Assembly (NCBI GenBank): GCA_004297065.1
Contig: SCUU01000077.1
Span: 1 to 64,000 of the forward strand
Reading direction: 5' to 3'
Length of the DNA stretch: 64,000 nt
DNA from: Gallionellaceae bacterium
Lineage (GTDB): Bacteria > Pseudomonadota > Gammaproteobacteria > Burkholderiales > Gallionellaceae
Part shown: piece by piece, positions 1-63,428 of the stretch
How positions within the stretch are numbered: the first letter of the stretch is position 1
Layout of the letters: each line of letters opens with the position of its first letter
Notes under the pieces: generated by a model
Database searches by the model: none
What the model was told of the DNA's origin: nothing
Seen by the model: only the letters and a program-made list of their open reading frames with translations
Made by a program: the position numbers and the translations under genes

Positions 1-73
1 TGAACCCCATTGATAGTTGCGTCTGGATCATCGTTCTCTCTTCGACACTCAACTGCTTGTATATTTTTCCCAT
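1..73 (-). mobile_element. IS30-family-like transposase, N-terminal fragment running off the window edge
   Basis: Minus strand from ATG at 73 reads MGKIYKQLSVEERTMIQTQLSMGF, like the N-terminus of IS30 transposases. An inverted repeat tgcaacattttctccgaaaaatgttgca lies just upstream (74-101). Confidence 0.55.
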
Positions 74-148
74 GCAACATTTTCTCCGAAAAATGTTGCA
101 CTTGGTTTTTGAGCGCGCCCCTTATGACACGCGCTTGAAGAGCGGCTC

Positions 149-520
149 TTAGACTTCTATGAATTCCAGCGCATTATTGTCCGGGTCGCGGCAGAACACC
201 GCACGGCGACCCGATTGGCTTTGCGTGTAGGCAATTCCCGCCTCATCCAGCCGCACGATCAAGCGCGGCAAGTCTGAAACTCCCAACGCCACATGACGGT
301 CACGCCCACCATGAGCTGGGCGTTTTAGACCCGCTTCTGGATCGGGCAACGACATCAGATGTATCTGCTGATTCGGCGCGATGTCGTACCACACTCCGCC
401 GAAACCCATCTGCGGTCGGCTTGAACTCGGACGCAAATCCAGCACACCCTCGTAAAAAGCGCGCGATCTGGCAAGGTCGCCGGTGAGAAAGGTGGCGTGA
501 TAGATGGCGGTGATCATCAC
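149..520 (-). CDS. VOC/glyoxalase-fold family protein
   Basis: [27 protein letters not shown]...[15 protein letters not shown] is typical of VOC proteins. Confidence 0.8.
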
Positions 521-1722
521 GCTTTGACCGGGACCACTCTGCTTGCCGCGAGTCTTGCCCTGGCTCTCGCCTCGTCTGTATCGCGGCCCGTCGCCAGCGC
601 CACGCCCATGCGGCGCTTCGCAAACGATTCCGGCTTGCCGAACAGGCGCACATCCGCTTCCGGCACGCGCAGCGCTTCATCCACTCCCCGGAACGCGATG
701 CCCTGTTCTTCCAACTGCCCGTAGATCACGGCACTCGCGCCCGCCGCACGCAACGCCGTATCCACCGGCAAACCGAGAATGGCGCGGGCATGCAGTTCGA
801 ATTCGTTGCAGCGCTGGCTGCACATCGTCACCATGCCGGTGTCGTGCGGGCGCGGGCTGACTTCGGAGAACCAGACCTGGTCGCCCTTCACGAACAGCTC
901 CACGCCGAAGATGCCCAAGCCGCCCAATTCGTCGGTAATTTTTTTGGCGATGTCGCGCGAACGTTGCAAGGCCGGCACCGGCATCGTCATCGGCTGCCAG
1001 CTTTCCACGTAATCGCCGTGTACCTGCACATGGCCGATGGGTTCGCAGAAATGCGTTTCGATCTCGCCGTTGACACCAACGGCACGCACGGTGAGCTGGG
1101 TGATCTCGTAGTCGAACCGGATAAAGCCCTCGACGATCACCCTGCCCCGATTCACGCGCGAACCGCTCGCGGCGTAATCCCAGGCCGCTTGCGCTTCATC
1201 CGCGTTATCCACTTTCGATTGGCCTTTCCCGGACGAAGACATTACCGGCTTAACGATGCACGGGTAGCCAATCACGGCGATGGCGGCACGCAACTCGTCC
1301 AGGCTGTCGGCGAATTTATATGGCGAGGTCGGCAGGCTTAGTGTCTCGGCGGCAAGGCGGCGTATGCCTTCGCGGTTCATGGTGAGTTGCGCGGCACGGG
1401 CGGTGGGAATCACGCGCGCCGCGCCTTCTTGCTCGATCTGCACCAGCATGTCGGTGGCGATGGCCTCGATCTCGGGCACGATCAGGTCGGGCTTCTCCCT
1501 CTCTATCAAGGCGCGCAAGGCCGCGCCGTCCGCCATGTTGATGACATGCGCGCGGTGCGCCACCTGATGCCCCGGCGCATTTGGGTAGCGATCCACCGCA
1601 ATGGTTTCCACACCGAGACGTTGCAACGCAATGATGACCTCCTTGCCGAGTTCGCCACTGCCGAGCAGCATGACTTTAGTGGCGGAAGGCGAAAGCGGGG
1701 TGCCGATAACAAGCGGTTTCAT
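517..1722 (-). CDS. purT: Formate-dependent phosphoribosylglycinamide formyltransferase (ATP-grasp)
   Basis: [30 protein letters not shown]...[11 protein letters not shown]...[14 protein letters not shown]. Confidence 0.95.
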
Positions 1723-1811
1723 AGGATGCCGATCAAAAATATGGGATGCGCAAAATTATACACAGCAGAGTAAGATGGCCTTCCCTTTCTGACCATTTGG
1801 GGAGCGAGATC

Positions 1812-1952
1812 ATGGCGAACATCGCGCAATTGTTGGGAGAAGAAGCAGAACATCTGTTGGCGCATCGTTGCGCCGGCATACCGAAAGAATCGCTGCACCT
1901 GCCGGATGCGGTGCAGGATGTTTATTTGTCGAAAGATGTGACGGTGGCTTGA
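1812..1952 (+). pseudogene. fbaB: Internally deleted remnant of class I fructose-bisphosphate aldolase (N- and C-termini fused)
   Basis: MANIAQLLGEEAEHLLAHRCAGIPKESLHLP matches the FbaB N-terminus as I recall it, fused to DAVQDVYLSKDVTVA, which matches the FbaB C-terminus (E. coli ...INAVQDVYLDSKITIA). Confidence 0.75.
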
Positions 1953-1984
1953 TTGCCTCGCCGACAACACCCCCCAAAGCATCA

Positions 1985-2046
1985 TCCGCGGATTAGTGCA
2001 AATTTTTTGGCCGTTTAATCTGTAGAAATCTGCGTAATCTGCGGAC
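1985..2046. repeat. Palindromic dispersed repeat, TCCGCAGATTACGCAGATT family, copy 1
   Basis: aatctgtagaaatctgcgtaatctgcgga (right arm) with degenerate left arm tccgcggattagtgcaaatt; matches the copy at 6939-7015. Confidence 0.65.
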
Positions 2047-2944
2047 AATTGTTTTTCGGTTTTTCTTCTTCCGCCATATGCAGCTTCCCCGACAGCAAGC
2101 TGGCCGAAGCGATCAGCGCCGCCCCCAGCCATTCGCGCAGCCCCAAAGCTTCATCGACCAGCGCATAGGAAGAAACGGCGGCCACCACCAACTCGAACAG
2201 GAATAGCACCACCGCGCGATTGGCGGAAAGGTGCGTCACGCCGTATTGCACAGCGAAGCTGGTGGCGCACAGAGTCATGCCCACCAGCATCAATATCAGC
2301 CAGCTTTGCGCATCTATCGCAACCAGCCGCCCGCCAATGCCGCCCTGCCACAACAGGAACGGCAAGGTCAGCGCGGTCGTGCCCAGCCACAGACTGAACG
2401 ATTTTGCTTCCACGCTGAGATGTGCCGCACGGCGCGAGACGACGTTGGAAAACGCGAAACCCATGCCCGCCGACAGGCCTATCCATTCGGACAGATTTTG
2501 CGGCAACGGCCAGCCGAGTTGCGGCTCCCACAGCATGATGAGCGCGCCGCCCAGCGACAAGGCGATGATGAGATAACCGTAACGGTTAAGCCGTTCGCCG
2601 AGCAGCCAGTACGAGAACAATATCGTCCACAGCGGTGCCAGATAGAACAGCAGCAGCACGCGCATCACTTCGCCGTGCAGCATTGCCAACACATAGCCGA
2701 AGTTGGCCCAGCCCGCGCCCAGAATCAGCGACAGCCCCCACCAGCCCAATTTGGGCGTCTCGCGCCACACGCGCGGGAACATGATTGCGCCGCACAACAT
2801 CGCCAACAGATAAGTAATCATCGTGGACATGGCACCGGAAACACCGATGTTTTGTAAAACGCGATAGGGATACCAGATCAGCCCCCACACCAATGCACCG
2901 CTCAACACGCCGGCGACCGGCATCACATTTTGTTTTGTTGGCAC
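2015..2944 (-). CDS. EamA/DMT-family transporter
   Basis: About ten hydrophobic helices in the DMT pattern; last codons (CPQITQISTD) come from a dispersed repeat. Confidence 0.8.
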   Translation of the reverse strand: MPTKQNVMPVAGVLSGALVWGLIWYPYRVLQNIGVSGAMSTMITYLLAMLCGAIMFPRVWRETPKLGWWGLSLILGAGWANFGYVLAMLHGEVMRVLLLFYLAPLWTILFSYWLLGERLNRYGYLIIALSLGGALIMLWEPQLGWPLPQNLSEWIGLSAGMGFAFSNVVSRRAAHLSVEAKSFSLWLGTTALTLPFLLWQGGIGGRLVAIDAQSWLILMLVGMTLCATSFAVQYGVTHLSANRAVVLFLFELVVAAVSSYALVDEALGLREWLGAALIASASLLSGKLHMAEEEKPKNNCPQITQISTD

Positions 2945-3004
2945 TCGTTACGCCTTTATAATCCGCAAAGTTTAAAAGCCATCCGTGGCTAAAAAATAAA
3001 AGCC

Positions 3005-4318
3005 ATGAATCCCGACCTGAATAAGCTGCAACCCTACCCGTTTCAAAAGCTCGCCAAACTGTTCGGTGCAGTCACGCCAAATGCGGCCTACAAACCCATC
3101 AGCCTACACATCGGAGAGCCCAAGCACGCCACGCCACAATTCATCAAGGATGCACTGGTCGCGGGTCTCGATGGGCTGGCGAATTATCCCACAACCCTCG
3201 GCGGCGACGCGCTGCGTAGCGCCATCGCCGACTGGCTGGTGCGCCGTTACAGCATTCCGCTGCCCGATGCGAAAACGCAAATCCTGCCGGTGAACGGCAG
3301 CCGCGAAGCGCTATTCGCCTTCGCACAGGCCGTAATTGACCGCAACCGCCCTCTCCCCAACCCTCTGGTGAAACAACTAGCCAATCGACTAAGCTCGCAC
3401 ACCCCGCCCGCCGCTGGCGGGCAGAGTACAAGAGCGAGCAAGTCGCTGGTTATCCCGGGGGGAGAGGGAGCCTCTCCGGCGGTGGTCTGCCCCAACCCGT
3501 TTTACCAAATCTACGAAGGCGCGGCCTTCCTCGCGGGTGCCACGCCCCACTTCCTCAACACCTTGCCGGAAGACAACTACGCGCTGAACTTCGCACAACT
3601 GCCGGAAGCGGTGTGGCAGCGCACGCAACTCATCTACGTCTGCTCGCCGGGCAACCCCAATGGCCGGGTCATGCCGCTGGCGGAATGGCAGACGCTGTTC
3701 GAGATGAGCGACCGTTACGGCTTCGTGATCGCTGCGGACGAGTGCTACTCCGAAATTTATTTCGGCGAGGACAAACCGCTCGGCGCGCTGCAAGCCGCGC
3801 AGCAACTGGGGCGCGGCGATTACAAAAATCTGGTGGTGTTCTCCAGCCTGTCCAAACGCTCCAACGTGCCCGGATTGCGCTCCGGCTTCGTCGCGGGCGA
3901 TGCCCTGATATTGGAGAAATTCGCGCTGTACCGCACCTACCACGGTTGCGCCATGAATCCCGCAGTGCAAACCGCGACCATCGCCGCATGGAACGATGAA
4001 GCGCATGTCGCGGAAAACCGCCACCTGTACGCGGAAAAATTCGCCAAGGTCATCACCCTGCTGGCTCCGCTGCTGCCGGTCAGCAAACCGGATGCGAGCT
4101 TTTATCTATGGTTCAAAACCCCCATCGCCGATACCGCCTTCGCGCAGCAGCTCTACCGCGACTATAATGTCACTGTGTTGCCCGGCAGCTTCCTGGCCCG
4201 CGAAGTGCACGGGATCAACCCCGGCGCGAATTTTGTCCGGCTGGCATTGGTCGCCAATCTGGATGAAACGCTGGAAGCCGCTCATCGCATCGCCGAATTT
4301 ACTTTAAAACTCAAATAG
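3005..4318 (+). CDS. dapC: Succinyldiaminopimelate transaminase, with in-frame palindromic insert
   Basis: PLP aminotransferase: [18 protein letters not shown]...[13 protein letters not shown]...[19 protein letters not shown]; adjacent to dapD. Confidence 0.9.
3349..3468 (+). repeat. Family A palindromic element, in-frame within dapC
   Basis: ccctctccccaaccctctggtgaaacaactagccaatcgactaag-[gctcgc...gcgagc]-caagtcgctggttatcccggggggagaggg; 120 bp = 40 codons. Confidence 0.85.
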
Positions 4319-4326
4319 GAAAAACC

Positions 4327-5148
4327 ATGCCGCAATTGCAAGCCATCATCGAAGAAGCCTTTGAACGCCGCGCCGAGATCACGCCGCGCAATGTGGATGC
4401 GCAACTGAAGGAATCCATCAATACCGTCATCGAGTATCTCGATCAGGGCAAACTGCGCGTGGCCGAGAAAATCGACGGCGTATGGGTCACCCATCAATGG
4501 ATCAAGAAGGCCGTGTTGCTGTCGTTCCGCATCGAAGACAATGCTTTCATCAAGGGCGGCTTCACCAACTATTTCGACAAAGTGCCGTCGAAATTCGCCG
4601 ACTACAACTCCAAAGAATTCCGCGAAGGCGGCTTTCGCGTGGTGCCTCCCGCCGCCGCGCGCCGTGGCGTTTACATCGCCAAGAACGTGGTGCTGATGCC
4701 CTCTTACTGCAACATCGGCTCTTATGTAGATGAAGGCACCATGGTGGACACTTGGGCCACCGTCGGCTCCTGCGCGCAGATCGGCAAGAACGTACACTTG
4801 AGCGGCGGTGTCGGCATCGGCGGCGTGCTGGAACCGGTGCAGGCCAACCCCACCATCATCGAAGACAACTGCTTCATCGGCGCACGCTCGGAAGTGGTCG
4901 AGGGTGTCATCGTGGAAGAAGGTTCGGTCATCTCCATGGGCGTGTTCATCGGCCAGAGCACCAAGATTCTGGATCGCGAAACCGGCGAAATTCACTTTGG
5001 TCGCGTGCCCGCAGGCTCTGTCGTGGTCAGCGGTAGCATGCCTTCCAAGGACGGTTCATACAGCCTGTACTGCGCGGTGATCGTGAAGAAGGTGGATGCC
5101 AAAACGCTGGGCAAGACGGGGATCAACGAACTGCTGAGAGGAATCTGA
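4327..5148 (+). CDS. dapD: 2,3,4,5-tetrahydropyridine-2,6-dicarboxylate N-succinyltransferase
   Basis: [19 protein letters not shown]...hexapeptide-repeat region...GINELLRGI. Confidence 0.95.
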
Positions 5149-5151
5149 AAA

Positions 5152-5248
5152 ACAGTTGTTAGCCGCTAGTCGCTAGACGTTAGTCGTTAGTTAAAAACCG
5201 CGAAGCGACAACCCCAACTAACGACTAACGACTAAAAACTAACGACTG
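5152..5248. repeat. Inverted/tandem repeat of (T)TAGTCGTTAGT units, copy 1
   Basis: gctagtcgctagacgttagtcgttagtt ... aactaacgactaacgactaaaaactaacgact; related copy near 63354-63428. Confidence 0.75.
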
Positions 5249-5264
5249 CTTTCAAGGGCAAACC

Positions 5265-6431
5265 ATGATCATCACACCGCTGCTACAACTCGCCGCCGAC
5301 AAGCAAGCTTCCGACCTGTTCTTCTCGGTCGGCGCGCCGATCAACGTCAAGATCGACGGCGTGGCTATGCCGGTCAATGCGCAGAATCTGGATGCGGACA
5401 CCATCAAACGTATCGCCTACGAGATGATGACGGAGCAGCAGATCGCCGAGTTCGAGTTGAACATGGAGATGAATTTCTCTTTCCGCGTGCCCGGCATCGG
5501 CAACTTCCGCGTCAACGTCTTCCGCCAGCGCGGTGATGTGGCGATGGTCATCCGCTATGTGCGCGGACAGATACTCAATGTGGAAGACCTGCACCTGCCA
5601 CTGGTTTTGAAAGAGCTCATCATGGAAAAGCGCGGGCTGGTGCTGGTGGTCGGCGCGACCGGTTCCGGCAAGTCGTCCACTCTAGCCGCGATGCTCGAGT
5701 ACCGCAACACCACCAAGAGCGGCCACATCCTCACCATCGAAGACCCGATCGAATACATCTTCAAGCACAACAAATCCATCGTGAACCAGCGCGAAGTCGG
5801 AACCGACACAGTGGATTACGGCAGCGCATTGGTGAGCGCCATGCGCGAAGCGCCGGATGTGCTGATGATCGGCGAAATCCGCGACCGCGACACGCTGAAA
5901 CACGCGCTGATCTTCGCGCAGACCGGCCACCTGTGCCTCTCCACGCTGCACGCCAACAACAGTTACCACGCGCTGAACCGCATCGTAAACTTCTTCCCCT
6001 ACGATGCGCGCCAGAGCGTGCTGTCGGACTTGTCCATGTGCTTGCGCGCGGTCATTTCGCAACGCCTGATACGCAACAGCCAAGGCAAGCTGGTACCGGC
6101 AGTCGAAGTGCTGTTGAACTCCGCGCTCATCGCCGACCTCATCAAGAACGACGAGATCGACAAGATACGCGAGGCCATGGAGCAAAGCGTCTCCGCGGGT
6201 TCGCAAACTTTCGAACAGGCGCTGTATAAACTCTTCAAGGCCGGATTCATCACCAAGGAAGAGGCCTTGCGCAACGCCGACTCGGCCAGCAACCTCTCCT
6301 CGCTGATCGACTATTCGCAGACGACCAAGATGAAAGCCTTCGGCCCGGATGAGCTTGCAGCAGCAGCGCAACCATCATCCCCTTCGCAACCTGCCGCCAA
6401 GTTCGATGGCATCAAGCTGAATCTTGAATAG
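5265..6431 (+). CDS. pilU: PilT/PilU-type twitching motility ATPase
   Basis: Walker A VVGATGSGKSSTLAAM; FQTGHLCLSTLHANN; VLMIGEIRDRDT. Confidence 0.88.
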   Translation: MIITPLLQLAADKQASDLFFSVGAPINVKIDGVAMPVNAQNLDADTIKRIAYEMMTEQQIAEFELNMEMNFSFRVPGIGNFRVNVFRQRGDVAMVIRYVRGQILNVEDLHLPLVLKELIMEKRGLVLVVGATGSGKSSTLAAMLEYRNTTKSGHILTIEDPIEYIFKHNKSIVNQREVGTDTVDYGSALVSAMREAPDVLMIGEIRDRDTLKHALIFAQTGHLCLSTLHANNSYHALNRIVNFFPYDARQSVLSDLSMCLRAVISQRLIRNSQGKLVPAVEVLLNSALIADLIKNDEIDKIREAMEQSVSAGSQTFEQALYKLFKAGFITKEEALRNADSASNLSSLIDYSQTTKMKAFGPDELAAAAQPSSPSQPAAKFDGIKLNLE

Positions 6432-6435
6432 CACG

Positions 6436-6888
6436 ATGAAGTTATATGGCATCCCCAATTGCGACACCGTAAAGAAAGCGCGCAACTGGCTCACCGCACA
6501 TGACACCGCCTACGAGTTCCACGACTTCAAGAAACATGGCGTGACCGAGGCCATGCTTTCCAACTGGCTCAAACAAGTCGGCTGGCAAAAGCTGCTCAAG
6601 AAGACTGGGCCGACCTGGGGCAAACTCTCGGATACAGTCAAGACCTCGATCAAAGACGATGCCTCGGCCTTGGCGCTGATGCTGGAACAACCCAACGTGA
6701 TAAAACGTCCGGTACTTGAACACAATGGCAAAGTGCTAGCGACTGGTTTCAGCGGGCAATATGACGAAAATTTGTTTGCCCGCGCCCCTCACCCCAACCC
6801 TCTGGTGGAACAACTAGCCAATCGACTAAGCCCGCAGGCGGGCAAGTCGCTGGTTATCCCGCAAGCGGGCGAGGGGACAAACGAATAA
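6436..6888 (+). CDS. ArsC/Spx/YffB-like reductase family protein with repeat-derived C-terminal tail
   Basis: MKLYGIPNCDTVKKARNWL...VIKRPVLEHNGKVLATGFSGQYDENLF then RAPHPNPLVEQLANRLSPQAGKSLVIPQAGEGTNE. Confidence 0.85.
   Translation: MKLYGIPNCDTVKKARNWLTAHDTAYEFHDFKKHGVTEAMLSNWLKQVGWQKLLKKTGPTWGKLSDTVKTSIKDDASALALMLEQPNVIKRPVLEHNGKVLATGFSGQYDENLFARAPHPNPLVEQLANRLSPQAGKSLVIPQAGEGTNE
6785..6876 (+). repeat. Family A palindromic element at the 3' end of the ArsC-like gene
   Basis: cccctcaccccaaccctctggtggaacaactagccaatcgactaag-cccgcaggcggg-caagtcgctggttatcccgcaagcgggcgagggg. Confidence 0.85.
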
Positions 6889-6938
6889 AATCGATCATCG
6901 CCCCTTGAAACCGACTACGAAAAAATCAAAACCTGATC

Positions 6939-7015
6939 TATCCGCAGATTACGCAGATTTCACAGATTAAAACCAGCAAATCTAAATCTGTGTGAATCTG
7001 CGTAATCTGCGGATA
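6939..7015. repeat. Palindromic dispersed repeat, TCCGCAGATTACGCAGATT family, copy 2 (both arms)
   Basis: tatccgcagattacgcagatttcacagatt ... aaatctgtgtgaatctgcgtaatctgcggata. Confidence 0.85.
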
Positions 7016-7030
7016 AAAAGAAAGTAATGA

Positions 7031-9072
<2,042 letters not shown>

Positions 9073-9075
9073 GCG

Positions 9076-10527
9076 ATGACTCTCGTTATTGACCAAGTCA
9101 GACGCGAGGCCAGCAGCCTGCTGGACTCTCAGCGCCGCGCTGAACTTGGTCAATACATGACCCCGTCGTCCATTGCGGCCTTTATGGCCTCGCTCTTTTC
9201 CTTCAACGGTCAAGCCAAATTGCTCGATGCGGGTGCCGGAGTGGGATCGCTAACCTCAGCGTTTTTGGACAAGGCATTGCAAGAAGGGGCGATAGTCGAA
9301 GCGGAAGCATGGGAGATTGACGAGATACTCGGCGGCTACCTGAAAAATACGCTAACCGATTTCGAGCATCACGGCCAAGGCAAAATCAAAGCTCACATTC
9401 ACGCCTCGGACTTTATCGAGGATGCAACCTTAGCTATCCAGTTTGATGGAGGCCAGCGTTATACCCACGCGATTCTCAATCCCCCTTACAAAAAAATATC
9501 CGCCAACTCAAAACATAGAAAACTGTTGCGAATGGTGGGGATTGAAACGGTCAACCTGTACACCGCATTCGTTGCGCTGACCGTGCTGCTGATGAAACAA
9601 GGCGGTGAAATCGTCGCCATTATTCCCCGGTCATTTTGCAACGGCAGTTACTACCGCCCGTTTAGGGATTTGGTTTTACGGAACTGCTCGATCCGCCAAC
9701 TGCATTTATTCGAGAGCCGCGATCAAGCTTTTCAGGATGATGATGTCTTGCAAGAGAACGTCATCATTCACTTGGTCAAAGGCGAACCGCAAGGCGCGGT
9801 CATTGTTTCAACCTCATGCGGCGGCAGGTTCCTAGACTGCCGTCAGGCAATCTTTAATGCCGACGCAATCGTGAAGCCAAGCGACGCGGAACAGTTCATC
9901 CACATTCCGACCGCGACAGAACAAACCAGCTCGCCAACCCACTGCACGCACACCTTGCAAGATATTGGGCTGGAAGTTTGCACTGGAGCCGTCGTGGATT
10001 TTCGGCTGAAGGATTATTGGCGCGATGAGCCCGGCGCTGACACCGCCCCCCTGCTCTATCCCCATCACTTCAACGATGGCTCTCTGTGCTGGCCGAAGCC
10101 GCACAAGAAACCTAATGCTTTGCTACTGAGTAACGATGTCCGCAAATGGCTGATGCCGCGCGGCCACTACGTGCTCGTCAAACGCTTTACCGCAAAGGAA
10201 GAACGGCGGCGTCTCGTCGCTTACTATTTGCCTTTTGATGCGCTTGATGCGGAATATATCGGCTTCGAGAATCACTGGAACGTGTTCCACATCGGCAAGC
10301 ACGGCATGGACGAAAACACCGCCAGAGGCATGGCCACTTTCCTGAACTCGACCAGCCTCGACGAGCATTTCCGTGTGTTTTCGGGACATACGCAGGTCAA
10401 TGCCACCGACCTGCGCAATATGCGCTATCCGAGCCGTGAGCAGTTGCAATTACTTGGTCAGCGCGCCAAGAATCAGCCCAATGACCAAGCCAGCATAGAC
10501 AGGTTGCTTGAAGGGCATGGATTCTAA
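9076..10527 (+). CDS. Eco57I-like N6-adenine DNA methyltransferase
   Basis: RRAELGQYMTPSSIAAFMASLF; LLDAGAGVGSLTSAF; catalytic NPPY motif (ILNPPYKKISANSKHRKLL). Confidence 0.85.
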   Translation: MTLVIDQVRREASSLLDSQRRAELGQYMTPSSIAAFMASLFSFNGQAKLLDAGAGVGSLTSAFLDKALQEGAIVEAEAWEIDEILGGYLKNTLTDFEHHGQGKIKAHIHASDFIEDATLAIQFDGGQRYTHAILNPPYKKISANSKHRKLLRMVGIETVNLYTAFVALTVLLMKQGGEIVAIIPRSFCNGSYYRPFRDLVLRNCSIRQLHLFESRDQAFQDDDVLQENVIIHLVKGEPQGAVIVSTSCGGRFLDCRQAIFNADAIVKPSDAEQFIHIPTATEQTSSPTHCTHTLQDIGLEVCTGAVVDFRLKDYWRDEPGADTAPLLYPHHFNDGSLCWPKPHKKPNALLLSNDVRKWLMPRGHYVLVKRFTAKEERRRLVAYYLPFDALDAEYIGFENHWNVFHIGKHGMDENTARGMATFLNSTSLDEHFRVFSGHTQVNATDLRNMRYPSREQLQLLGQRAKNQPNDQASIDRLLEGHGF

Positions 10528-10790
10528 TGGTATTTCTTGGCTTTGATCCCGGTGGCATCAATAACTTTGGCTGGGCGACACTTCACGTTAATGAAGATGC
10601 CGGGTTTAATCTAGCAACCGGCGTCGTCTCCAACGCGCCCGATGCAGTCCGCCTCGCCTCACAAATGGCGACATCGGAACCTTTAGGCATCGGTATTGAT
10701 GCTCCCTTGTTCTGGGTGCAACAGGGTGAGTTGATCCATTTTGCCCCGCTGGTCGAAAAATATCCTATTGGTTCCCACAATGACCGTTAA
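10527..10790 (+). pseudogene. 5' fragment of a predicted RNase H-fold (DUF429-like) nuclease
   Basis: MVFLGFDPGGINNFGWATLHV...GIGIDAPLFWVQQGE resembles the start of DUF429-like proteins but stops at 87 aa, running into hpnC. Confidence 0.55.
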
Positions 10791-11595
10791 ACACTACGAA
10801 AACTTCCCCGTCGCCTCTATCCTGCTGCCCAAGCGCTTGCGCCGGGCGGTGGAAATCATTTATCACTTCGCGCGGCAGGCGGACGACTTCGCGGATGAGG
10901 GCGACATGCCCGATGCGGAACGGCTAGCGAAGCTGGATGAGTTCCGCGCCGAACTGAATCGCATCGCCGCACACGAAACGCCGCGCACGCCGTTGTTCCG
11001 AGAACTTGCCGCTATCGTTCAAGAGCACCGGCTACCGCTGCAACTCTTCCACGATTTGCTCGATGCTTTCTCGCAAGACGTGGTGAAAAAGCGCTACGCG
11101 AATTTTGACGAGCTGCTGGATTATTGCCGCCGCTCGGCCAACCCGGTGGGGCGGTTGCTGCTGCATCTGTACGGAGAAGCCACCCCGACCAACCTCGCCT
11201 ATTCCGATGCCATCTGCACTTCGCTGCAACTCATCAACTTCTGGCAGGACGTCAAAAAAGATTACGCCATCGACCGCATCTATCTGCCGCAGGACGAGAT
11301 GGTGCGCTTCGGCGTGACGGAAGCGCATATCGCGGAAGGCCGGGCGGATGCGGCTTGGCAAGCATTGATGCGGTTCCAAATCCAGCGTGCGCGCGACATG
11401 ATGCACAGCGGCAAGCCGCTCGGCACCATCCTGACCGGACGCATCGGTCTGGAAATGCGCCTCATCATCGCGGGCGGATTGCGCATCCTCGCCAAACTGG
11501 ACGGCGTGCGCTACGACATGTTCGACAAACGCCCGGTATTGCGCCCGCTCGACTGGGTTATCATGTTGTTCAAGAGTGCTCCATTCAATTTCTAA
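10780..11595 (+). CDS. hpnC: Squalene synthase HpnC
   Basis: MTVKHYENFPVASILLPKRLRRAVEIIYHFARQADDFADEGD...INFWQDVKKDYAIDRIYLP. Confidence 0.92.
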   Translation: MTVKHYENFPVASILLPKRLRRAVEIIYHFARQADDFADEGDMPDAERLAKLDEFRAELNRIAAHETPRTPLFRELAAIVQEHRLPLQLFHDLLDAFSQDVVKKRYANFDELLDYCRRSANPVGRLLLHLYGEATPTNLAYSDAICTSLQLINFWQDVKKDYAIDRIYLPQDEMVRFGVTEAHIAEGRADAAWQALMRFQIQRARDMMHSGKPLGTILTGRIGLEMRLIIAGGLRILAKLDGVRYDMFDKRPVLRPLDWVIMLFKSAPFNF

Positions 11596-12429
11596 ATGAC
11601 TCCAGACCAATACTGCCAAGACAAAGCCGCCGCCAGCGGCTCCAGCTTCTACAACAGCTTCCGTTTTTTGGACAAAGACAAGCGCCGCGCCATCACCGCG
11701 CTGTATGCCTTTTGCCGCGAGGTGGACGACGTGGTGGACGAATGCTCGGACACCAACGTGGCGCGCACCACGCTCAACTGGTGGCGCGATGAAGTTGCCG
11801 CGATATACAGCGGCAAACCGCAACATCCCGTGGCTATCGCGCTCGTCCCCATCGTCAAACAATACAACATGGCGCAGGAGCATCTGCTGGAGATCATCGA
11901 CGGCATGGAGATGGATATCGACCAGCCGCGCTATGCCGATTTCAAGGCGCTGCAACTGTATTGCTACCGCGTCGCCTCGGTGGTCGGCCTGCTCACGGTG
12001 GAAATTTTTGGTTACACCGACCGCCAGACGCTGAAGTACGCGCACGACCTCGGCATCGCCTTCCAGCTCACCAACATCATCCGCGACGTGGGCGAAGATG
12101 CGCGGCGCAACCGCATCTATTTGCCGATGGACGAGCTGCAACAGTTCGGCGTACCGGCTGCGGATATTCTCAATTCGCGCGAAACCGAAAACTTTCAGAA
12201 GCTGATGGCCTTTCAGGTCGAGCGCGCCCGCCAGTATTACCGCCAAGCGCTCGAACATCTGCCTGCCGTAGACCGCAAAGCGCAGCGCACGGGGCTCATC
12301 ATGGCGGCTATCTATCAGGCCACGCTGGACGAGGTCGTGTCCAGCGGTTGCCATGTGCTGAAAGAGCGCGTCTCGCTCACGCCGACATACAAACTGTGGC
12401 TGGCGGTCAAGGCATGGTGGAAAAGCTAA
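11596..12429 (+). CDS. hpnD: Presqualene diphosphate synthase HpnD
   Basis: TPDQYCQDKAAASGSSFYNSFRFLDKDKRRAITALYAFCREVDDVVDE...LTNIIRDVGEDARRNRIYLP. Confidence 0.93.
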   Translation: MTPDQYCQDKAAASGSSFYNSFRFLDKDKRRAITALYAFCREVDDVVDECSDTNVARTTLNWWRDEVAAIYSGKPQHPVAIALVPIVKQYNMAQEHLLEIIDGMEMDIDQPRYADFKALQLYCYRVASVVGLLTVEIFGYTDRQTLKYAHDLGIAFQLTNIIRDVGEDARRNRIYLPMDELQQFGVPAADILNSRETENFQKLMAFQVERARQYYRQALEHLPAVDRKAQRTGLIMAAIYQATLDEVVSSGCHVLKERVSLTPTYKLWLAVKAWWKS

Positions 12430-13997
12430 CCCCTCCCAACCTCCCCTTTTCAGGGGAGGAGCCCGCTCCCTCCCTGAGAAGGGAGGGCTGGGGTGGGTTA
12501 AGGGTTGGAGTTATCGGCGGCGGTTATGCTGGCATGGCCGCCGCCGTCACGCTTGCCGAACAAGGCATCCCCGTCACCGTCTTCGAAAGCGCCAAACAGC
12601 TCGGCGGTCGCGCACGCGGGGTGCGCATTCCAAATCCGATTCGGCAGAAAGAACAACACGCCCCTCCCTCTATCCAATTTTCTGATGGAACGACTGATGG
12701 AACAACTAGCCATCTCACTAAGCCGCACAAAACGCGGCAAGTGATTGGTTATAGCCATTCGACTAAGCCCGCAAGTGGACAAGTCGCTGGTTACCCCGGA
12801 GGGGGAAAGGGCGACCGCCCCCTGTCGGGGGATTATTTGACTCTGGACAATGGCCAGCACATCCTGCTCGGCTGCTACCGCAACACGCTCAAGCTCATCG
12901 CCCAAGTCGGCGGCAATATCGAACAGGATTTTTTGCGCTTGCCGCTGCAACTCACGCTGCACGACCGCTTTGAACTCAAAGCCCCGCACCTGCCCGCGCC
13001 GCTGCATCTGCTCGTCGCCCTGCTCGCCGCTCAAGGATTGTCCTTCGCCGAACGTCTGCAAGCGGCGCGTTTCATGCTGGCGATGCGCAAACTGAAATTC
13101 AAACTGGCGCGCGATGTCAGCGCGCTGGCGTTGCTGCGCGCCCACGGACAAAGCGAAGACCTGATCCGCCTGATGTGGGAACCTATCTGCATTTCTGCGC
13201 TGAATACGCCGACGCACAAGGCTTCCGCGCAAGTATTGCTCAACGTGCTGCGCGACAGTTTGAATGGCCGTTTTGCGGATAGCGAAATGCTGTTGCCGCG
13301 TCTGGATTTTTCCGCACTGTTCCCGGATCGGGCGGCGCAATACGTGACGCGGCACGGCGGCACGGTACTGGCTTCCTGCGGCGTGGACGCCATCATTCCG
13401 CACGACGATGGTGTCGAGTTAATCACAGCACAGGGCACACAGCATTTCAGCCACATCGTCTGCGCGGCAGCTCCCGCCAATACCGCGCGCCTGTTCCGCG
13501 CCATCCCGGCACTCGTCCCCGTCGCCGCACAAATTGATGCCATCCCCTACCAACCCATCTACACCGTGTATCTGCAATATCCCGCCCATGTCACCCTGCC
13601 GCAGCCCATGCTGGGATTCGAGCGCTGTATTGCACAGTGGTTGTTCGACAAAGGTCGGATTGCGAAACAGCGCGGCCTTATCGCCGCAGTCATCAGTGCA
13701 GAAGGACTACATCAGGAGTGGGATCACGAACAACTGGGCGAAAAAGTCGCACAAGAATTGCGCGAACAACTCGGCATCGCAGATACGCCGTTGTGGCACA
13801 AGGTCATTGCCGAAAAACGAGCCACCTTTTCGTGCAGCGTGAACCTGTCCCGCCCTATCCACACCACACCGCTTGCCAACGTAATGCTGGCAGGCGATTT
13901 CAGCGCAGGCGATTATCCGGCGACGTTAGAGGGGGCGATTTTGAGCGGGATACGTGCAGCGAATGAAGTTATTCATGCACACGTGTGTAAACGCTAG
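12414..13997 (+). CDS. hpnE: Hydroxysqualene dehydroxylase HpnE, with two repeat-derived segments
   Basis: RVGVIGGGYAGMAAAVTLAEQGIPVTVFESAKQLGGRARGV...LTLDNGQHILLGCYRNTLKLI; repeat-derived N-terminal extension and internal insert. Confidence 0.88.
   Translation: MVEKLTPPNLPFSGEEPAPSLRREGWGGLRVGVIGGGYAGMAAAVTLAEQGIPVTVFESAKQLGGRARGVRIPNPIRQKEQHAPPSIQFSDGTTDGTTSHLTKPHKTRQVIGYSHSTKPASGQVAGYPGGGKGDRPLSGDYLTLDNGQHILLGCYRNTLKLIAQVGGNIEQDFLRLPLQLTLHDRFELKAPHLPAPLHLLVALLAAQGLSFAERLQAARFMLAMRKLKFKLARDVSALALLRAHGQSEDLIRLMWEPICISALNTPTHKASAQVLLNVLRDSLNGRFADSEMLLPRLDFSALFPDRAAQYVTRHGGTVLASCGVDAIIPHDDGVELITAQGTQHFSHIVCAAAPANTARLFRAIPALVPVAAQIDAIPYQPIYTVYLQYPAHVTLPQPMLGFERCIAQWLFDKGRIAKQRGLIAAVISAEGLHQEWDHEQLGEKVAQELREQLGIADTPLWHKVIAEKRATFSCSVNLSRPIHTTPLANVMLAGDFSAGDYPATLEGAILSGIRAANEVIHAHVCKR
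12428..12500. repeat. C-rich/G-rich palindrome encoding the HpnE N-terminal extension
   Basis: acccctcccaacctccccttttcaggggaggagc / gctccctccctgagaagggagggctggggtgggtt; same type as 46291-46370. Confidence 0.8.
12659..12811 (+). repeat. Family A element (about 1.5 units), in-frame within hpnE
   Basis: tgatggaacaactagccatctcactaag-ccgcacaaaacgcgg-caagtgattggttat then agccattcgactaagcccgcaagtggacaagtcgctggttacccc. Confidence 0.85.
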
Positions 13998-14155
13998 TGT
14001 CGCAAACCAGAAATAACGGGACAAATGAAACGGGTGGATTTTTTTGTCAGGCAAGGCGCAGACCCACAGCCGTATGGGGTATACGGCAAGGGGGTGCAAC
14101 GCGGCATGGCGAAAAAAGACGCCGTTTCATGTTTCGTTATTTCTGGTTTGCGACA
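13998..14155. mobile_element. 158-bp MITE-like element with long terminal inverted repeats and 4-bp duplication (CTAG)
   Basis: TGTCGCAAACCAGAAATAACGggACAaATGAAACGG ... inverse complement CCGTTTCATGTttCGTTATTTCTGGTTTGCGACA; CTAG at 13994-13997 and 14156-14159. Confidence 0.85.
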
Positions 14156-14163
14156 CTAGGCTC

Positions 14164-15366
14164 TTACCAGCCCGACTCACGCTCCGGCGTCGCAGTAATT
14201 TTGTGGATGCTGAGGTCGGCACCGTTAAACTCCTCTTCGGCGTCGAGGCGAATACCCACGGTCTTTTTCAATACGCCATAAACGGCAAAGCCTCCAGCCA
14301 GGGCAATGCCGATACCGAACAATGTGCCGACAAGTTGCGACATGAAGCTGACGCCGCCGACGCCGCCCAAAGCCTTGGTGCCGAATATGCCCGCAGCAAT
14401 ACCACCCCAGGCACCGCATAAGCCGTGCAACGGCCATACGCCGAGCACGTCGTCGATCTTCCAGCGGTTCTGCGTCAGGGTAAACATCCACACGAACAAG
14501 CCGCCCGCGACGACGCCCACAATCAGCGCCCCCAGCGGGTGCATCAAATCGGAGCCCGCGCACACTGCAACCAGCCCGGCCAGGGGGCCGTTATGGGCAA
14601 AGCCGGGATCGTTTTTCCCCAACCACAAGGCAGCCAGCGTGCCACCGACCATTGCCATCAGGGAATTGACCGCGACCAAGCCGCTGATCTTGCCGATCTC
14701 TTGTGCGGACATGACGTTAAAGCCGAACCAGCCTACGCTCAGTATCCATGCTCCGAGCGCAAGGAATGGGATACTGGAAGGCGGGTGGGCGGAGATGCGC
14801 CCTTCCTTGTTGTAGCGCCCGCGCCGCGCACCCAGCAGCAGTACTGCGGCCAAACCGATCCAGCCGCCCACCGCATGCACCACGACCGATCCTGCAAAAT
14901 CATGGAACTCGGCACCGAACGCTGCATTCAGCCAGTCTTGTATGCCGAAGCGGTGGTTCCATGCGATGCCCTCAAAGAAGGGATACACGAAGCCGACCAG
15001 CATGAAAGTCGCGGCTTGCTGCGGATTGAATTTGGCGCGTTCGGCAATACCGCCCGAAACGATGGCGGGAATCGCCGCCGCAAAGGTGAGCAGGAAAAAA
15101 AACTTCACCAGCTCATAACCGTTCTTCTGCGCCAGCACGTCCGCCCCGCTGAAAAAATTCACACCGTAAGCGATGCTGTAGCCGATAAAAAAATACGCCA
15201 AGGTCGAGATGGCAAAGTCGGTGAGTATTTTGACCAGCGCATTGACCTGGTTCTTTTTGCGTACCGTGCCCAATTCCAGAAACGCGAAGCCCGCATGCAT
15301 CGCGAGCACCATAATGGCGCCAAGAAGAATAAACAGTGCATCGCTGCCAACTTTCAGGTTTTCCAT
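14164..15366 (-). CDS. amt: Ammonium transporter (Amt family)
   Basis: DFAGSVVVHAVGGWIGLAAVLLLGARRGRY; FGFNVMSAQ; DDVLGVWPLHGLCGAWGGIAAGIFG. Confidence 0.93.
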   Translation of the reverse strand: MENLKVGSDALFILLGAIMVLAMHAGFAFLELGTVRKKNQVNALVKILTDFAISTLAYFFIGYSIAYGVNFFSGADVLAQKNGYELVKFFFLLTFAAAIPAIVSGGIAERAKFNPQQAATFMLVGFVYPFFEGIAWNHRFGIQDWLNAAFGAEFHDFAGSVVVHAVGGWIGLAAVLLLGARRGRYNKEGRISAHPPSSIPFLALGAWILSVGWFGFNVMSAQEIGKISGLVAVNSLMAMVGGTLAALWLGKNDPGFAHNGPLAGLVAVCAGSDLMHPLGALIVGVVAGGLFVWMFTLTQNRWKIDDVLGVWPLHGLCGAWGGIAAGIFGTKALGGVGGVSFMSQLVGTLFGIGIALAGGFAVYGVLKKTVGIRLDAEEEFNGADLSIHKITATPERESGW

Positions 15367-46270: not shown

Positions 46271-46544
46271 AACCCGGATTGTCCATTAGAACCTAACCCC
46301 TCCCAACCTCCCCTTGTCAGGGGAGGAGCCGAACCTGCTCTCCCCCTGACAAGGGGGAGTTGGAGGGGGTTTTGAGCCCAATGGATTATCTGGGTTTAAC
46401 CAGGATAATCCATTAGGCGCTGCGGCATCCCCTCCCCCTTGCATAACCAGCGACTTGGCTGGCGTTGTTTGCCAGCTTAGTCGAATGGCTAGTTGTTTCA
46501 TCAAGGGGAAGGAACTGGCTCGGCTCTAATGAACTATCTGGGTT
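46271..46544. repeat. Two tandem nested composite palindromes
   Basis: Units 46271-46396 and 46398-46544, each with outer arms AACCNGGATNRTCCATTAG / CWAATGRAYTATCTGGGTT and C-rich/G-rich inner arms. Confidence 0.75.
46431..46512 (-). repeat. Family A palindromic element, intergenic copy inside composite unit 2
   Basis: Minus strand ccttccccttgatgaaacaactagccattcgactaag-ctggcaaacaacgccag-ccaagtcgctggttatgcaagggggagg. Confidence 0.85.
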
Positions 46545-63353: not shown

Positions 63354-63428
63354 TCCTAGTCGTTAGTTATTAGTCGCTAGTTGTAGACGCGCCGTTTAAC
63401 TAACGACTAACGACTACAAACTAGTAAC
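63354..63428. repeat. Inverted/tandem repeat of (T)TAGTCGTTAGT units, copy 2
   Basis: cctagtcgttagttattagtcgctagttgtag ... tttaactaacgactaacgactacaaactag. Confidence 0.75.

What the first reader, a model, noticed from the sequence alone, without database searches (positions are those of the whole stretch)
6785..6876. Family A element forms a new C-terminal tail on an ArsC-like protein
The ArsC/YffB-like protein should end near ...ATGFSGQYDENLF, but continues with RAPHPNPLVEQLANRLSPQAGKSLVIPQAGEGTNE, entirely repeat-encoded. It uses the same frame as dapC (NPLV[K/E]QLANRLS...KSLVIP). Stop-codon replacement by a palindrome is a second mode of coding capture.
Basis: partly seen in the sequence, partly recalled or inferred. 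Interest (0 to 1): 0.65.

Follow-up and report, generated by a model that had tools for sequence, protein, structure and literature searches.

The report
Nested hairpin repeats coding a protein tail
In an uncultured iron-bacterium relative, a small enzyme-like protein carries an extra tail written by two repeat DNAs, one inserted inside the other without breaking the reading frame, and the same 54-letter hairpin repeat sits in frame inside many other genes of this genome, including one needed for protein synthesis.

Summary
The tail is real. ORF 6436-6888 encodes a 150-aa YffB/ArsC-family protein, whereas most family orthologs end at 115-116 aa. The tail is layered. A G+C palindrome (6786-6803 + 6858-6876) replaced the native stop; tails built on it occur in five Gallionellaceae genomes (one with a stop part-way), and a sixth ortholog has a different extension at the same place. 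In the window lineage a second element, "E" (6804-6857, 54 nt = 18 codons), then inserted into that palindrome 3' of a CT, with no duplication and no frame break; three tailed relatives carry the palindrome without E. The old gene end (ETDYEKIKT*) survives at 6904-6936. E has about 150 copies in this genome and is largely confined to the Gallionellaceae. It has a covarying hairpin, a CT on its 5' side in 83/90 copies, and a length divisible by three in 80/90. It inserts into itself, and lies in frame inside the single leuS, purL, hrpA, moeA, lysA, lgt and dapC. Sister species have E in the same dapC palindrome 2 nt apart, in different frames. Stop replacement by a repeat is known (Delihas 2007; Rickettsia palindromic elements). 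The new part is the CT-targeting, hairpin-in-hairpin, codon-length element. Its transposase was not found; expression is untested.

The parts
6436..6888 (+). YffB/ArsC-family (Spx/MgsR-like) protein gene with repeat-encoded C-terminal tail, 150 aa
   Evidence: PF03960 E 4e-16; NF008107 above cut-off; orthologs 115-116 aa
6751..6774 (+). SGQYDENL: native-like gene end kept upstream of the repeat
   Evidence: Resembles NETDYENL of untailed orthologs; shuffle p 0.005 here, 0-0.07 in the other five loci
6786..6803 (+). Left part of the G+C palindrome (PHPNPL)
   Evidence: Same sequence without E in G023 and G001; many palindrome copies in the genome
6804..6857 (+). Element E, 54 nt, 18 codons (VEQLANRLSPQAGKSLVI), inserted 3' of CT in the palindrome
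   Evidence: Boundary set by comparison with empty palindromes in L090 and L091 and the copy alignment; hairpin covariation
6858..6876 (+). Right part of the G+C palindrome (PQAGEG)
6877..6888 (+). 3' extension of the palindrome element (GCAAACGAAT-CG elsewhere), here ACAAACGAATAA, giving the new stop
   Evidence: Other copies read GCAAACGAATCG
6904..6936 (+). Second copy of the native gene end: LETDYEKIKT*
   Evidence: Score 41 against a maximum of 36 in 500 shuffles; found in all six loci with tails or extensions
6940..7014 (.). Unrelated second hairpin repeat (ATCCGCAGATTACGCAGATT / AATCTGCGTAATCTGCGGAT) between the second gene end and dapE
   Evidence: Direct reading; other copy at 2017-2048
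3349..3472 (+). dapC copy: palindrome + E with a further small hairpin insert in E's loop, in frame inside the gene
   Evidence: 40-aa insert absent from dapC of G023 and G001; G049 has an independent E at this place
12682..12811 (+). E nested in E (two 5' tails, two hairpins)
46429..46512 (-). Further E copy (60 nt) in a palindrome

Best explanation
The tail was built in two insertion steps. First, a REP-like G+C palindrome inserted at the 3' end of the yffB-like gene, apparently duplicating about 30 nt of the gene end. The upstream copy runs on into the palindrome, and the downstream copy survives as a fossil next to dapE. The palindrome is open in this frame and its 3' extension supplies a new stop (GAA TCG to GAA TAA), so the protein gained an extension. 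Second, in the window lineage the 54-nt hairpin element E inserted inside this palindrome immediately 3' of a CT without target duplication, adding exactly 18 codons. E is a non-autonomous mobile element. Its length is a multiple of three, two of its three forward frames and one reverse frame are open, and both CT sites of the palindrome put E into an open frame, so insertion into palindromes already read in frame does not break genes. E most likely moves as single-stranded DNA cut after CT by an unidentified HUH/Y1-type or related enzyme. The tail itself is probably a tolerated, disordered addition without a selected function. Shown: anatomy, empty and filled sites, nesting, in-frame copies, distribution. 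Inferred: the duplication at the gene end, the transposition chemistry, translation and neutrality of the tail.
For: Tail orthologs without E (PHPNPLPQAGEGANE*) against the window with E. Second gene end beyond shuffles in six loci. 83/90 tailed E copies follow CT and 80/90 have lengths divisible by three; 14/14 in-gene copies do. Nested E-in-E. G000 and G049 carry E in the same dapC palindrome at two adjacent CTs. Among E copies with coding signal on both sides of one strand, 15 are in frame and open, 4 in different frames, 2 with a stop. The single leuS has two in-frame inserts absent in G049, G001 and G044. Pfam domains run across inserts in MoeA, HsdR and HrpA. Hairpin covariation: 27 double-change cells against 7.6 shuffled. 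AlphaFold2: core pLDDT above 90, tail about 60.
Against: No transposase is linked to E. Y1 transposases are undetected in some E-rich genomes (G070, G087, G027, and single-contig G044 with 26 matches) and present in E-poor ones (G057, G054); no long E with separated ends was found. Tail carriers are scattered on the gene trees, which a single ancestral insertion explains only with several precise losses or with exchange. Intergenic copies also mostly have lengths divisible by three (66/76), so that regularity is not itself proof of coding selection.
Confidence: 0.72

Rival explanations
1. Simple stop loss: the palindrome first sat in the yffB-dapE spacer, and a later point mutation removed the stop so that translation ran into it; the downstream gene-end look-alike is only the dapE leader.
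For: Palindromes often lie just downstream of genes; the upstream gene end resembles the native end.
Against: The downstream sequence matches the native C-terminus including its stop in all six loci, and most orthologs have little or no yffB-dapE spacer to host a palindrome.
Confidence: 0.2
2. The repeat acts as RNA (terminator, mRNA stabiliser or uncoupler between yffB and dapE) and the peptide tail is only a side effect. Not exclusive of the best explanation.
For: Strong hairpins at the gene end; dapE starts at or overlaps the yffB stop in many orthologs, and the insert separates them; published REPs lie mostly 3' of genes (PMC3733652).
Against: The same elements lie in the middle of leuS, purL, moeA and others, where a terminator would be harmful; no expression data.
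Confidence: 0.3
3. The insert is removed from the mRNA or skipped by ribosomes, so the protein still ends in the native ETDYE..KL* peptide downstream.
For: The downstream gene end still reads as the native peptide plus stop in all six loci.
Against: Lengths divisible by three and open frames would not be needed; no intron-like features; Rfam found no known RNA in window 1-15000; the window copy has drifted (IKT for LKL).
Confidence: 0.04
4. Assembly or binning artefact of a metagenome-assembled genome.
For: 343 contigs, 5.7% contamination.
Against: The palindrome-built tail or remnant, with the second gene end, is found in five genomes; insert lengths differ between them.
Confidence: 0.01

Closest known systems
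Rickettsia palindromic elements (RPE; Ogata 2000, 2002, as reviewed in PMC10969869)
   Same: Small palindromic DNA inserted in frame in many unrelated genes, translated as a peptide insert, open reading frame kept.
   Different: RPEs are described as about 150 bp with a conserved peptide per element; E is 54-60 nt, used in at least three frames, targets CT inside another palindrome, and occurs in free-living Betaproteobacteria.
RU-1/ERIC fusions of enterobacteria (Delihas 2007, PMC2759123)
   Same: RU-1 at the 3' end of amidase gene ECA3499 eliminated the normal stop and added a repeat-coded C-terminus beyond the conserved domain; a stop inside the RU ends the protein.
   Different: A single 127-bp element there; here two nested unrelated elements and a retained second copy of the native gene end.
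GTAG and CGTC REPs with intragenic copies (PMC3733652)
   Same: Small hairpins, partly intragenic, slightly more than 10% of those at the coding end; RAYT enzymes studied in PMC8266576 cut at C|T.
   Different: E has no GTAG or CGTC tag at its hairpin foot and is not next to a RAYT gene in G000.
IS110-family elements such as IS621 inserting into REPs with a CT core (PMC11208160)
   Same: Target a CT inside palindromic repeats.
   Different: Full-size elements with a recombinase; a core-based reaction would leave CT at both junctions, whereas filled and empty yffB sites differ only by E.

Membership tests
Rickettsia palindromic element | Palindromic element found in frame inside unrelated protein genes | tested here: met
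Rickettsia palindromic element | One conserved encoded peptide | tested here: not met
   E is read in two forward frames and one reverse frame
Rickettsia palindromic element | Sequence homology to RPE families | not tested
   No RPE sequences were compared
GTAG/CGTC REP | GTAG or CGTC tetranucleotide at the hairpin foot | tested here: not met
   Alignment A2: the bases before the hairpin are mostly CNAC
GTAG/CGTC REP | Cognate RAYT gene flanked by the repeat | tested here: not met
   G000 Y1 genes carry no E at their ends; the C40 one has GTGGGAG repeats; no in-genome correlation across the family
MITE (IS-derived) | Terminal inverted repeats and target-site duplication | tested here: not met
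   Filled and empty sites differ only by E, no duplication; one hairpin with a 5' tail, no terminal inverted repeats
IS200/IS605-like single-strand element | Insertion 3' of a short fixed motif, no duplication, hairpin near the ends | tested here: met
   CT in 83/90 copies; for the hairpin
IS200/IS605-like single-strand element | Y1 transposase acting on the ends | tested here: inconclusive
   Y1_Tnp undetected in several E-rich genomes; G000 IS200-like ends unlike E

The most novel reading that the evidence does not exclude
E is a new kind of miniature mobile element adapted to life inside coding sequence: codon-multiple length, three open frames, and a CT target inside resident palindromes whose CT phases place it in an open frame. 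In the Gallionellaceae it repeatedly inserts into housekeeping proteins, including into itself, without inactivating them.
Probability: 0.45. Interest if true: 0.75.

Novelty: new variant of a known kind. Interest (0 to 1): 0.58.

Why it matters
It extends in-frame palindromic insertion, best known from Rickettsia, to a family of free-living iron-oxidizing bacteria, with dozens of species and sister-species empty sites, so gain, nesting and tolerance of coding insertions can be followed step by step. The dapC pair shows two apparently independent insertions of one element into the same codon region in different frames, a natural experiment on how proteins absorb selfish DNA. Automatic annotation in this family will also contain many repeat-coded peptides.

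Tried and rejected
RAYT or IS200 as E's transposase: no E at the ends of the Y1 genes of G000 and no co-occurrence across 158 genomes. An autonomous long E: of 113 left halves only five lack a right half within 150 nt, and these look truncated or diverged or lie at a contig edge. Rfam on window 1-15000: no match. Reading the whole tail as one element: rejected, because palindromes without E exist at the same locus. IS110-style core insertion: rejected for E at yffB because no second CT is created. First impression that most E copies are intragenic: corrected by a wider sample of 109 copies, where the largest class (32) lies without coding signal on either side.

Full report
OBSERVATION. The ORF 6436-6888 encodes a 150-aa protein of the ArsC/YffB family (PF03960; NF008107 above cut-off). 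In the same family of genomes (Gallionellaceae judging by named relatives) most orthologs end at 115-116 aa with ...GFNETDYENLKL* or similar. The window protein reads ...GFSGQYDENLFARAPHPNPLVEQLANRLSPQAGKSLVIPQAGEGTNE*.

THE REPEAT IS TWO NESTED ELEMENTS. Orthologs in G023 and G001 carry a shorter tail..FARLPHPNPLPQAGEGANE* and ..FARSPHPNPRPHAGEGANE*. Their DNA holds a G+C palindrome, CCCTCACCCCAACCCTCTCCCGCAAGCGGGCGAGGG. The window has the same palindrome interrupted after CCCTCT by exactly 54 nt (6804-6857), which add VEQLANRLSPQAGKSLVI. Aligned copies from the genome show a constant 54-60 nt unit, GATGGAACNACTAGCCATTCGACTAAGC-(variable hairpin)-AAGTCGCTGGTTAT, sitting in palindromes of different sequence. 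I call this unit E.

PROPERTIES OF E. In 90 copies with a recognisable 5' tail, 83 are preceded by CT, and 80 have a length divisible by three (54, 57, 60, 63, 84, 87, 96, 99, 129); this holds for 14/14 copies inside genes and 66/76 others. Filled and empty yffB palindromes differ only by E, so there is no target duplication. E folds into a bulged hairpin with strong covariation (27 cells changed on both sides against 7.6 in shuffles; covariation score 0.214 against 0.074). Some copies have two 5' tails followed by two hairpins, exactly what E inserted at ACT^AGCC of another E gives (window 12682-12811, L139, L158, L203). The loop of the dapC copy holds a third small hairpin insert. G000 has 156 motif matches against 4 for the reversed control. 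144 of 158 family genomes have matches, up to 213, but in low-count genomes these are at the level of the control. Outside the family the motif is almost absent except for one genome with 8 matches.

E IN GENES. Many copies lie in frame in the middle of long conserved ORFs: leuS (two copies), purL, hrpA (two), moeA, hsdR, lysA (nested E), lgt, dapC and others; Pfam domains run across the inserts. In a sample of 109 copies, 15 lie between stretches with coding signal in the same frame with no stop, 4 between same-strand stretches in different frames, 2 have a stop, and 32 have no coding signal on either side. The sample came from searches with E itself, so it is not a census. The only leuS of G000 has two in-frame inserts missing from G049, G001 and G044. 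The dapC insert of 40 aa is missing from G023 and G001; G049 has a 29-aa insert at the same place, in which E follows CCCT rather than CCCTCT and is therefore read as DGTTIHSTKPASGQVAGY instead of [15 protein letters not shown]. Two independent E insertions into one resident palindrome is the simplest reading; gene conversion is not excluded. It also shows that the frame shared by yffB and dapC in the window is not a rule.

HOW THE TAIL AROSE. In all six loci with a tail or extension at this place, the native gene end reappears downstream: LETDYEKIKT* at 6904-6936 in the window, ATDYEKLKL*, ETDYEELKL*, ETEYEKLDI*, ETDYKNLKL*, ETEYNNLKL* elsewhere; each scores above 500 shuffles. The sequence just upstream of the repeat (SGQYDENL, SGQGDEYKNL) also resembles the native end (shuffle p 0 to 0.07). 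I infer that the palindrome inserted with a duplication of about 30 nt of the gene end; simple stop loss is the rival. The palindrome's 3' extension, elsewhere GCAAACGAATCGC, gives the new stop AACGAATAA. Tail carriers are scattered on the yffB and dapE trees; an old insertion with several precise losses between the duplicated ends, or exchange between lineages, would explain this, and neither was proved. That the downstream gene end still reads as the native peptide in all six loci is only partly explained (short divergence, or its role as dapE leader).

STRUCTURE AND EFFECT. AlphaFold2 gives the core at pLDDT above 90 and the tail from about residue 111 at about 60, with a short helix in the E-coded part. 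The tail lies beyond the fold, so tolerance is plausible. Translation is untested.

MECHANISM OF MOVEMENT. No duplication, a fixed motif on the 5' side only and a hairpin are what single-strand HUH (Y1) elements show, and REP enzymes cut at C|T (PMC8266576). But no Y1 gene is linked to E: some E-rich genomes have no detectable Y1_Tnp (single-contig G044; G070; G087; G027), while others with up to 14 have no E above control level (G057, G054). No autonomous version was seen. The mover is unknown.

KNOWN OR NEW. C-terminal stop replacement by a small repeat was described for RU-1 in enterobacteria (PMC2759123), and in-frame palindromic insertion for Rickettsia RPE and intragenic REPs (PMC10969869; PMC3733652). 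The six literature searches in the open library turned up no description of E or of such insertions in Gallionellaceae; subscription papers are not held. I rate it a new variant of a known kind.

Noticed in passing
L135 / G000:C316:19229-22312: The only leuS of the genome carries two in-frame E-bearing inserts (about 57 and 44 aa) and looks otherwise intact.
   Followed up: partly
L158 (G000:C99:6800-10900): purL-like ORF with two internal E-bearing inserts, one of them nested E-in-E, and another nested copy at its cut-off start, all in one open frame.
   Followed up: partly
window 3367-3453; also L137, L158: A third small hairpin (ACACCCCGCCCGCCGCTGGCGGGCAGAGTA-like) inserted in the loop of E; similar sequence also sits inside palindromes right of E in L147, L151 and L157.
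   Followed up: no
window 6940-7014 and 2017-2048: Another hairpin repeat (ATCCGCAGATTACGCAGATT..) inserted between the duplicated yffB end and dapE in the window, separating genes that are adjacent or overlapping in many relatives.
   Followed up: no
L220 (G023:C35:1-2500): A palindrome without E appears to lie in frame inside a tsaD-like gene (FSGLKTAVLLAVQQNASPPHPNPLPQAGEG); read by eye only.
   Followed up: no
L204 (G000:C40:28500-32000): A RAYT-like gene flanked by GTGGGAGCGACCTCCCGGTCGCGA repeats, a different REP family in the same genome.
   Followed up: no
window 5161-5247 and 63388-63424: Inverted repeat built of GTTAGTCGTTAGT-type units (CTAACGACTAACGACTA), another dispersed repeat.
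   Followed up: no
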